A stretch of 64,000 nt of DNA from Pusillimonas sp. TS35 (GTDB lineage Bacteria > Pseudomonadota > Gammaproteobacteria > Burkholderiales > Burkholderiaceae_B), in the NCBI RefSeq assembly GCF_009857885.1, contig NZ_WWER01000002.1:434001-498000 (forward strand), in the 5' to 3' direction. The notes below the pieces were generated by a model. It saw only the letters and a program-made list of their open reading frames with translations, was not told where the DNA came from and made no database searches. Below, piece by piece: positions 50,900 to 52,563 of this stretch. Positions within the stretch are counted from its first letter, which is position 1. Each line of letters starts with the position of its first letter. Made by a program: the position numbers and the translations under genes.

Positions 50900-50975
50900 G
50901 TGTAGCGGCGTTTAGTATGCGAGGAGTCTCAAGCATACTTTCTTTGCCAGTATGGTGGCGGTGCGGACGGGCATA

Positions 50976-51002
50976 AAAATGGGACACCCATGCAGGTGTC
51001 CC
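50976..51002 (-). terminator. Rho-independent terminator of the candidate small RNA
   Basis: An eight-base-pair perfect stem with loop TGCATG on the minus strand, followed by ATTTTT. It is 34 bases past the distal end of the proposed RNA's first stem and is not needed by rpoH, which has its own terminator at 51270-51302. Confidence 0.8.
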
Positions 51003-51092
51003 AAAAACATCCACTTCAATAGGGAGGGGAAGAGGAGAAGCCGAAGTGGATGGAGAACAATGGCTCGCGCATCGCAGCAGAAGCTTTGTTCA
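50976..51092 (-). ncRNA. Candidate small RNA with CU-rich loop
   Basis: A proposed leftward RNA of about 117 bases between rpoH and the antiporter gene. A possible promoter reads TTGAAC (complement 51123-51128), 18 bases, CCTAAT (complement 51099-51104). A perfect ten-base stem (51043-51052 with 51008-51017) closes a 25-base loop rich in C and U that contains CTCCTC and CCCTCCC, complementary to Shine-Dalgarno sequences. TTTTT follows. Next comes a second hairpin, GGGACACC with GGTGTCCC (50981-51002), followed by TTTTT. No start codon with coding content is seen. Confidence 0.55.
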
Positions 51093-51269
51093 CAGTGAAT
51101 TAGGCTACGCGGGAATGGGGAAGTTCAATTTTTTGGGGCGAATGAGTAAGATATTGTTTCTCAATTCAATCCGTGGGCGACCCCAACGGGGCGATACGCA
51201 CGGGTGCGGGCGCTGCCGCAGCCTGCCCCGTCATGGCGCTCGGGTTAAGAAACGACATCTTCGGGCAAT

Positions 51270-51302
51270 AAAAAAGGCCGCACTTGTTACCGAAGCGCGG
51301 CC
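51270..51302 (-). terminator. Rho-independent terminator of rpoH
   Basis: On the minus strand a GGCCGCGCTT/AAGTGCGGCC stem (one G-T pair) closes a seven-base loop and is followed by TTTTTT. It starts 17 bases after the rpoH stop. Confidence 0.9.
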
Positions 51303-51318: not shown

Positions 51319-52209
51319 TCAGGCCGTGAGCGCAGTGCGCAGCTTTTTGAACGCGGCGGCTTCGATTTGGCGGATGCGTTCAGCGGAGACACCGAATTCG
51401 GCGGCGAGCTCATGCAGCGTGGCACCGCCCTCGTCTTGCAGCCAGCGTGCCTCAACAATGCGGCGCGAGCGGTCGTCCAATACACCCAACGCGTTGGCCA
51501 AGCCTTCGCCTTGCAATGTGTAGTAGGCATTGCGTTCAAGCACAGCGGAAGGCTCATGGTCGCCGTTGTCGGACAGGTACGAAATGGGCGCAAACGATGC
51601 GTCGTCGTCATCGCGGGTCTCGAGGGCCATTTCCTGGCCCATCATGCGCACCTCCATTTCGGAGACGTCCTGTGGGCGAACGTTGAGCTCGCGGGCGATC
51701 GCGTCTACCTGGTGCGAATCGAGGCTTTGGCCGCTGTCTTCGGGCCGCATGCGGCGCAGGTTGAAGAACAGCTTGCGCTGTGCCTTGGTGGTGGCTACTT
51801 TTACCAGCCGCCAGTTGCGCACGATGTATTCATGGATCTCTGCTTTGATCCAATGCACCGCGAAGGATACCAAGCGTACCCCGCGGTCAGGGTCGAAGCG
51901 CTTGACTGCCTTCATGAGGCCCACATTGCCTTCCTGGATCAGGTCGGCGTGCGCAAGGCCATAACCCAAGTACTGCCGGGCGATGGATACGACCAGGCGC
52001 AGGTGCGCGGTAATGAGTTGGCGTGCGGCATCGAGATCGGATTCGTCGCGCAAGCGCCGCCCCAGTTGCATTTCCTCGTCGTGGGTCAGCATGGGCAGGC
52101 GATTGACGGCACTGATATAGGCTTCGATCGTGCCGAGCGCACCAGGATTGGAAACGGCAACCGCCAACTGGGCGTTGGACAGGGCCAGCGAATGGGAGGA
52201 TTGCGTCAT
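51319..52209 (-). CDS. rpoH: RNA polymerase sigma factor RpoH (sigma-32)
   Basis: Heat-shock sigma factor, 296 residues. Region 1.2-2.4 includes AHLRLVVSIARQYLGYGLAHADLIQEGN near residue 68, followed by the -10 recognition part RGVRLVSFAVHWIKAEIHE. The RpoH box is seen as QRKLFFNLRR near residue 145, which is specific for sigma-32. Region 4.2 is at the C-terminus (ELAAEFGVSAERIRQIE). A perfect CIRCE operator lies in its promoter region, so HrcA control adds to the usual heat control. Confidence 0.97.
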   Translation of the reverse strand: MTQSSHSLALSNAQLAVAVSNPGALGTIEAYISAVNRLPMLTHDEEMQLGRRLRDESDLDAARQLITAHLRLVVSIARQYLGYGLAHADLIQEGNVGLMKAVKRFDPDRGVRLVSFAVHWIKAEIHEYIVRNWRLVKVATTKAQRKLFFNLRRMRPEDSGQSLDSHQVDAIARELNVRPQDVSEMEVRMMGQEMALETRDDDDASFAPISYLSDNGDHEPSAVLERNAYYTLQGEGLANALGVLDDRSRRIVEARWLQDEGGATLHELAAEFGVSAERIRQIEAAAFKKLRTALTA

Positions 52210-52273: not shown

Positions 52274-52563
52274 TGCCTGGAAAGAATTCAAAAAGATACC
52301 CATAAGAGCAGTTTTTTGATGAAAAAGTTCCGTTTTGAAGGGTATTTGTGTGCAGAATGCGCCCCAAACCAGCAACCCGTCGCAAGGGCTGCTATTAGCG
52401 AACCTGGGTAGTGATCCTTCGATGTTCCTTATGTCCGTATCGCCCACCAACTCGATCAGCTGAAACACCGCACTGATGCGGTCGATTCTGCGAGTGCGGG
52501 GGCCGTACTTGAGGTATCTTTAGTGTTTCCCGGTTTCCTCATTATCTTGAAGGCATTCCCATC
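52274..52563. other. Intergenic region between rpoH and the binding-protein gene
   Basis: No convincing gene. A 73-codon minus-strand frame passes through the CIRCE element and has no conserved content. The region should hold the rpoH promoter and the promoter of the rightward binding-protein gene; I could not place -35/-10 boxes with confidence. Confidence 0.5.

What the first reader, a model, noticed from the sequence alone, without database searches (positions are those of the whole stretch)
50976..51128. Candidate small RNA with an anti-Shine-Dalgarno loop next to rpoH
A leftward unit has a possible promoter (TTGAAC, 18 bases, CCTAAT), a ten-base perfect stem whose 25-base loop is almost purely C and U (CTTCTCCTCTTCCCCTCCC), a U tract, then a second perfect hairpin with its own U tract. 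rpoH already has a terminator upstream, so this terminator needs another transcript. The exposed CU-rich loop could pair with GGAGG ribosome-binding sites, as described for alphaproteobacterial CcsR-type RNAs. I know of no described member here.
Basis: partly seen in the sequence, partly recalled or inferred. Interest (0 to 1): 0.75.

Follow-up and report, generated by a model that had tools for sequence, protein, structure and literature searches.

The report
Small anti-ribosome-site RNA beside rpoH
The stretch next to the heat-shock sigma factor gene very probably makes a small regulatory RNA, the counterpart of one already described in the whooping-cough bacterium, and comparing relatives adds a clue about what switches it on.

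Summary
On the minus strand at 50975-51126 lie a promoter motif, a 10-bp hairpin with a 25-nt C/U loop, and a terminator. It behaves as a gene: stem and terminator covary while the loop hardly changes, and of 56 distinct fetched copies 54 sit downstream of rpoH on its strand.

It is not a new kind. CT_521, a ~120-nt Hfq-dependent sRNA beside rpoH with a C/T-rich seed matching Shine-Dalgarno motifs, was published for Bordetella pertussis in 2025 (PMC12235514); 9 of 9 genomes of the inferred Bordetella genus carry our element. The nearest Rfam family, RF02278, scores 25.6 bits, threshold 50.

Corrected: the conserved promoter is ECF/sigma-E-like, GAACTT-N16-[A/C]CTAA (53 of 56), not sigma-70. 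Added: a covarying 5' hairpin, and no terminator found between rpoH and the sRNA in 28 of 34 loci by a simple scan, so there it may double as the rpoH 3' end. Predicted: a Hfq-assisted translational regulator under envelope-stress control; the sigma factor, expression and targets here are inferred.

The parts
51100..51126 (-). ECF/sigma-E-like promoter: GAACTT (51126-51121), 16-nt spacer, CCTAA (51104-51100)
   Evidence: Pattern .AAC[TC][TA]-N16-.C[TC]AA found 64-91 nt upstream of the CU hairpin in 53 of 56 distinct loci; spacer poorly conserved
50975..51096 (-). sRNA gene (CT_521-type), about 117-122 nt; 5' end inferred at about 51093-51096
   Evidence: Promoter motif and terminator; size agrees with ~120 nt of CT_521; covariance model R1 96.7 bits, only match in the genome at E<=1
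51055..51091 (-). 5' hairpin, variable in sequence, stem GAACAA 51091-51086 with TTGTTC 51060-51055
   Evidence: 78.5% of cells paired against 60.6% in shuffles, 50 cells with change on both sides against 17.2
51008..51052 (-). CU-loop hairpin: 10-bp stem and 25-nt loop
   Evidence: 100% of cells paired in 35 sequences, 6 of 10 pairs with change on both sides, 4 never vary
51022..51040 (-). Pyrimidine seed CTTCTCCTC-TT-CCCCTCCC; blocks TTCTCCTC and CCCCTCCC with a linker of variable length
   Evidence: Blocks invariant in the 35 sequences of A2; changed in L130, L194 and L195; C/T-rich seed of CT_521 in RIL-seq
50975..51003 (-). Intrinsic terminator of the sRNA (stem 51003-50980, T tract 50979-50975)
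   Evidence: 8 of 9 pairs with change on both sides, 89.5% of cells paired
51276..51302 (-). Separate rpoH terminator, present here
   Evidence: a simple scan finds one in 6 of 34 loci
51319..52209 (-). rpoH, the linked upstream gene
   Evidence: ORF of 296 aa; homologue upstream on the same strand at 54 of 56 sRNA loci
52301..52331 (-). Putative sigma-E-type promoter of rpoH, GGAACTT at 52331-52325, TC after 17 nt
   Evidence: SigE transcribes the rpoH (fam) promoter of B. bronchiseptica in vitro (PMC3490749, passages)

Best explanation
This is the orthologue, in a relative of Allopusillimonas ginsengisoli, of the Hfq-dependent trans-acting sRNA CT_521 of Bordetella: a single-copy sRNA gene just downstream of rpoH. 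RNA polymerase with an ECF sigma factor, most likely RpoE/SigE, starts at about 51093-51096 and stops at the terminator ending at 50975, giving an RNA of about 117-122 nt with three hairpins. The middle hairpin presents a two-block C/U seed that, with Hfq, pairs with Shine-Dalgarno regions of several mRNAs and mostly blocks their translation. Shown here: sequence, predicted structure, covariation, linkage, promoter motif. Shown by others for CT_521: transcript, Hfq dependence, contact with mRNAs sharing an SD-like motif. Inferred: the orthology, the sigma factor, expression in this organism, its targets and the sign of its effect.
For: Fold z -4.03. Covariation: 95.0% of cells paired against 86.8% shuffled, 14 of 19 pairs with change on both sides against 6.7, slid controls 0-6 pairs and 36-47% paired; 5' helix likewise. 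Model R1 in 89 of 121 genomes of the family, 35 of 43 genera, one match in each genome listed (some of these genomes gave the model its sequences). 54 of 56 distinct fetched loci have rpoH upstream on the same strand and 53 of 56 the ECF-like promoter; the pattern occurs 45 times in 1.46 Mb (both strands of L001-L104), the sRNA sites included. Inferred Bordetella genus: 9 of 9 genomes. CT_521: ~120 nt, between bp3747 and rpoH, conserved C/T-rich region next to the terminator, 22 RIL-seq partners, SD-like target motif, level reduced without hfq (PMC12235514 section 20). RpoE is encoded in the genome (TIGR02939, 298.8 bits). In the window the loop prefers regions upstream of starts; 3 of 100 shuffled loops do as well (a weak test).
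Against: No expression data for this organism. The CT_521 sequence itself was not in hand; orthology rests on place, size, seed and terminator, and on genomes assigned to Bordetella through one named record. The covariation control 'further standard pair types' does not stand out (91 of 500 shuffles as high), nor strongly the number of changed pairs in the 5' helix (43 of 500). The -10 begins with A or C in all 53 loci, where any letter was allowed, whereas 12 of the 14 rpoH motifs read TC after 16 nt (counted by eye). GGAACTT upstream of rpoH was found in only 14 of 35 distinct loci. The exact form GAACTT-N14/15-KGACTAA gave 33 matches in 101 genomes, 22 at the sRNA, and no regulon emerged. 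For CT_521, tcfA fell in the mutant, and FHA and PT protein amounts did not change, so simple repression does not cover all its effects. 32 of 121 genomes of the family have no match.
Confidence: 0.85

Rival explanations
1. It is mainly the 3' end of the rpoH mRNA: the hairpins are the rpoH 3' UTR and terminator, and any short RNA is released from it by a nuclease.
For: In 28 of 34 loci a simple scan found no terminator between rpoH and the sRNA; 33 of the 54 loci with rpoH have 160 nt or less from stop to hairpin; in L045, L061 and L079, outside the family, a similar hairpin pair begins about 40-55 nt after the rpoH stop with no ECF-like promoter found.
Against: Here rpoH has its own terminator. 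A promoter motif at a near-fixed distance is kept in 53 of 56 loci. CT_521 gives a band of the expected ~120 nt, was studied by deleting its -10 region, and its level rises in RNase E and RNase III mutants, which speaks against release by RNase E.
Confidence: 0.12
2. It is a divergent member of the RF02278 double-hairpin ('toxic') sRNA family, like S17/CT_433 and the Burkholderia ncS RNAs.
For: Best Rfam match of this stretch, 25.6 bits, E 0.0042, aligned over all 64 positions; same hairpin-plus-terminator plan and CU-rich seeds.
Against: Below the 50-bit gathering score; the same genome has another locus at 69.3 bits; R1 finds only the rpoH locus in this genome at E<=1.
Confidence: 0.2
3. The promoter is a housekeeping sigma-70 promoter (TTGAAC-18-CCTAAT) as first read.
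For: 4 of 6 and 4 of 6 letters match TTGACA and TATAAT by eye in this genome.
Against: TT before GAAC is not kept in relatives, while GAACTT, the 16-nt spacer and CTAA are; A at position 2 of the -10 is absent; one search does not list it.
Confidence: 0.1

Closest known systems
CT_521 sRNA of Bordetella pertussis (PMC12235514)
   Same: Place beside rpoH, ~120 nt, C/T-rich conserved seed just upstream of the terminator, a promoter of its own
   Different: Organism; the next gene here is an NhaP-like antiporter. In the passages I saw, the paper gives no promoter class, no 5' hairpin covariation and no shared 3' end with rpoH
RF02278 Betaproteobacteria toxic sRNA / double-hairpin RNAs ncS03, ncS05, ncS27, ncS62; S17 (= CT_433) is related
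   Same: CU-rich seeds, hairpin followed by terminator, predicted pairing with ribosome-binding sites
   Different: Sub-threshold score; different locus; seed partly 5' of the stem in the model; three to five copies in Burkholderia; S17S is processed from a longer RNA
CcsR-type RNAs of alphaproteobacteria
   Same: Anti-SD-like pyrimidine loop (recalled)
   Different: Different class and locus (recalled); not compared by sequence here
NmsR sRNAs of Neisseria
   Same: CU-rich unpaired stretches complementary to ribosome-binding sites, as told in PMC5688073
   Different: Tandem copies; not compared by sequence here

Membership tests
CT_521 | Located beside rpoH | tested here: met
   54 of 56 distinct loci on the rpoH strand, the other 2 without rpoH in the fetched stretch; CT_521 lies between bp3747 and rpoH (its strand is not stated in the text I saw)
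CT_521 | C/T-rich conserved seed just upstream of the terminator | tested here: met
CT_521 | About 120 nt with its own promoter | tested here: inconclusive
   Predicted 117-122 nt from sequence; not measured in this organism
CT_521 | Sequence homology to the B. pertussis RNA itself | tested here: inconclusive
   No record named B. pertussis was in hand; Bordetella genomosp. 4 (L033) matches beside rpoH and 9 of 9 genomes of the genus inferred from it match
CT_521 | Hfq dependence and SD-like targets | not testable with these tools
   Reported for B. pertussis
RF02278 Betaproteobacteria toxic sRNA | Score at or above the gathering threshold of 50 bits | tested here: not met
   25.6 bits
RF02278 Betaproteobacteria toxic sRNA | CU-rich hairpin plus terminator hairpin | tested here: met
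CcsR (alphaproteobacteria) | Homology to described CcsR RNAs | tested here: inconclusive
   No Rfam match at gathering score in the window, but whether Rfam holds a CcsR model was not checked
sigma-E (RpoE, ECF02) promoter | GGAACTT-like -35, spacer near 16, TC-type -10 | tested here: inconclusive
   -35 core and spacer met in 53 of 56; the -10 starts with A or C in all 53

The most novel reading that the evidence does not exclude
A rpoH-sRNA module kept across much of the Alcaligenaceae in which an envelope-stress ECF sigma factor drives both rpoH and, from a second promoter in the rpoH 3' region, a Hfq-dependent anti-SD sRNA, so that heat-shock induction and broad translational control are wired together; the sRNA may have arisen from the rpoH 3' UTR, perhaps still its only form in some outside lineages.
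Probability: 0.4. Interest if true: 0.6.

Novelty: new member of a known kind. Interest (0 to 1): 0.4.

Why it matters
CT_521 is one of two sRNAs that its authors call central riboregulatory hubs of B. [quoted passage not shown] The conserved ECF-type promoter and the rpoH linkage give a testable answer in harmless relatives, and the alignment and model could fill a gap in Rfam.

Tried and rejected
Rfam at gathering score gave nothing for the whole window. AniS and alphaproteobacterial ar15 appear only as sub-threshold matches (22.9 and 17.9 bits against 50 and 40). A loose sigma-E pattern gave no hit upstream of rpoE; the one match lies inside the rpoE coding stretch. Looking for a wider regulon with the sRNA promoter failed: in the own genome GAACTT-N15..17-MCTAA has 2 matches, this one and one not followed, against 6 for the reversed pattern; in 101 genomes 11 of 33 matches lie away from the sRNA, which does not look above the reversed-pattern control (columns not summed; the split of 22 and 11 is by comparing coordinates). 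Two model hits outside the family in the order search (L196 and L197, E 1.1e-4 and 6.2e-4) show no rpoH in their stretch and were set aside. Other CU-rich stretches after rpoH (L040, L042, L048, L064) were not counted because the model does not match them. The NhaP antiporter was rejected as the conserved partner: its distance varies or it is absent from the fetched stretch. The test of loop pairing in the window uses mechanically chosen starts of 46 ORFs and is weak. Structure prediction and fold searches were not used.

Rows dropped or outside counts: L025 and L027 as duplicates of L002 and L005; L076 as a chance BLAST match. In one search the pattern excluded T at the first -10 place and missed L013, L017 and L030; by eye L017 reads GAACTT-N16-TCGAA. 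In one search, which allowed any letter there, L035 and L130 gave no hairpin by the strict pattern; L130 does carry the RNA, promoter and rpoH with a changed loop, L035 has no match. L193, L194 and L195 are not among the 56: L193 and L195 have promoter and rpoH; L194 has neither the pattern nor a rpoH match in its stretch. Of the 89 genomes with a model hit only the best 30 loci were fetched.

Full report
What is there. The minus strand carries, in order, rpoH (52209-51319), its terminator (51302-51276), the motif GAACTT-N16-CCTAA (51126-51100), a 5' hairpin (51091-51055), a hairpin with a 10-bp perfect stem and a 25-nt pyrimidine-rich loop (51052-51008), and an intrinsic terminator (51003-50975). 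An NhaP-like antiporter gene follows (50899-48275; the name is my reading of the sequence). The plus strand has no T tract after either hairpin, so the direction is minus. The stretch folds better than all 200 shuffles (z -4.03).

Is it a gene? A DNA search of 61 genomes found it in 24, all in the window's own family (24 of 37 there, 0 of 24 outside). The nearest named relative is Allopusillimonas ginsengisoli (L025, 86% rpoH identity); its sRNA region equals that of genome G002, which shares the window's genus. Of the 14 named loci L025-L038, taken by their rpoH, 13 have the RNA downstream of rpoH; L035 does not, nor does Taylorella, L094. In an alignment of 35 distinct sequences stem 1 is paired in 100% of cells with 6 of 10 pairs changed on both sides and 4 never varying; the terminator is paired in 89.5% with 8 of 9 such pairs. 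None of 500 shuffles reaches the covariation score, though 91 of 500 reach the count of further pair types; slid controls fall to 36-47% paired. The 5' hairpin covaries too: score 0.471 against 0.224, 0 of 500 shuffles as high, but 43 of 500 reach the number of changed pairs, 4 sequences have gaps there, and 3 to 10 sequences break each pair. The loop blocks TTCTCCTC and CCCCTCCC do not vary in the 35, while the linker between them does; L130, L194 and L195 show changed blocks. A covariance model (R1) finds one copy in the own genome at E<=1 and hits 89 of 121 genomes and 35 of 43 genera of the family, partly the genomes it was built from. In 250 genomes drawn across the order it hits 9, of which 7 are in the window's family.

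Where it sits. From the fetched loci (30 of the 89 hits, plus those) I collected 56 distinct copies by a strict loop-and-stem pattern, so loop conservation among them is partly by selection. 54 have rpoH upstream on the same strand at 108-347 nt; 2 have no rpoH in the fetched stretch. In the window rpoH has its own terminator; a simple scan, which can miss weak ones, finds such a terminator in 6 of 34 loci, so in many relatives the sRNA terminator may also end the rpoH mRNA. In three loci outside the family (L045, L061, L079; model E 1.5e-6 or better) a similar hairpin pair begins about 40-55 nt after the rpoH stop, with no ECF-like promoter found. This hints at a 3' UTR origin but rests on three metagenome contigs.

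What drives it. With any letter allowed at the first -35 and first -10 place, 53 of 56 loci have the pattern 64-91 nt upstream of the hairpin, and in all 53 the -10 starts with A or C. In both strands of L001-L104 (1.46 Mb counted) a slightly narrower pattern occurs 45 times, the sRNA sites included. This looks like an ECF promoter. RpoE is encoded in the genome. GGAACTT lies upstream of rpoH here (52331) and in 14 of 35 distinct loci in all, 12 of these with TC after 16 nt by eye (the window's has it after 17). SigE of B. bronchiseptica transcribes the rpoH (fam) promoter in vitro (PMC3490749, passages). Against a simple assignment: the A or C in the sRNA -10, and no wider regulon with the exact motif.

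What it does. In B. pertussis a ~120-nt sRNA between bp3747 and rpoH, CT_521, has a conserved C/T-rich region before its terminator, is reduced without hfq, rises in RNase E and RNase III mutants, and has 22 RIL-seq partners whose common motif resembles a Shine-Dalgarno sequence. Deleting its -10 lowered tcfA and raised plrR and bp0913; ptxA and fhaB mRNA appeared raised without change in protein (PMC12235514, section 20 whole and other passages). The same paper says that other bordetellae and related bacteria conserve its 3' region. The genus of G018, which I infer to be Bordetella because G065 matches Bordetella genomosp. 4 (L033) at 100% over 131 nt, has our element in 9 of 9 genomes. I therefore take the window's RNA as the CT_521 orthologue acting by Hfq-assisted pairing at ribosome-binding sites. 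In this window the loop binds the 25 nt upstream of 46 mechanically chosen starts better than stretches inside genes; 3 of 100 shuffled loops do as well.

Relation to known families. RF02278 is the closest Rfam model (25.6 bits, threshold 50). The Burkholderia double-hairpin RNAs carry that accession (PMC5688073, passages), and S17, which is CT_433, is said to have significant homology to them (PMC11722255, passages). The own genome has a separate RF02278 match at 69.3 bits. So the element works like that family but is not filed in it. CcsR kinship was not tested by sequence. In print: a search for 'CT_521' with Bordetella finds one paper. Broader searches (of which I saw capped lists of 20 of 30, 15 of 107 and 12 of 252 titles, none found) showed no other description of a rpoH-linked sRNA of this kind in titles or abstract starts; older B. 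pertussis sRNA lists such as PMC3110155 were seen in listing only, and supplements were not readable.

Verdict. Very probably a real, well conserved sRNA gene of a kind already described in Bordetella; new here, as far as those searches go, are the wider host range, the ECF-like promoter, the covarying 5' hairpin and the likely shared 3' end with rpoH.

Noticed in passing
window 52301-52331 (-): Sigma-E-like GGAACTT motif 122 nt upstream of rpoH; such a motif was found in 14 of 35 distinct loci.
   Followed up: partly
L155 (own genome, C24:183822-183886): An RF02278 sRNA gene, probably S17/CT_433-type, in the same genome, 69.3 bits.
   Followed up: no
L045, L061, L079, downstream of rpoH: CU-loop hairpin plus terminator directly after rpoH outside the family, preceded by GGTTGGTTG.
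   Followed up: partly
about 20-30 nt upstream of GAACTT in many relatives: A weakly conserved T-rich element such as TTTACA or GATACAA, of unknown role.
   Followed up: no
L060: A metagenome record named Bordetella parapertussis has only 64% rpoH identity to the query and no model hit, so the name looks doubtful.
   Followed up: no
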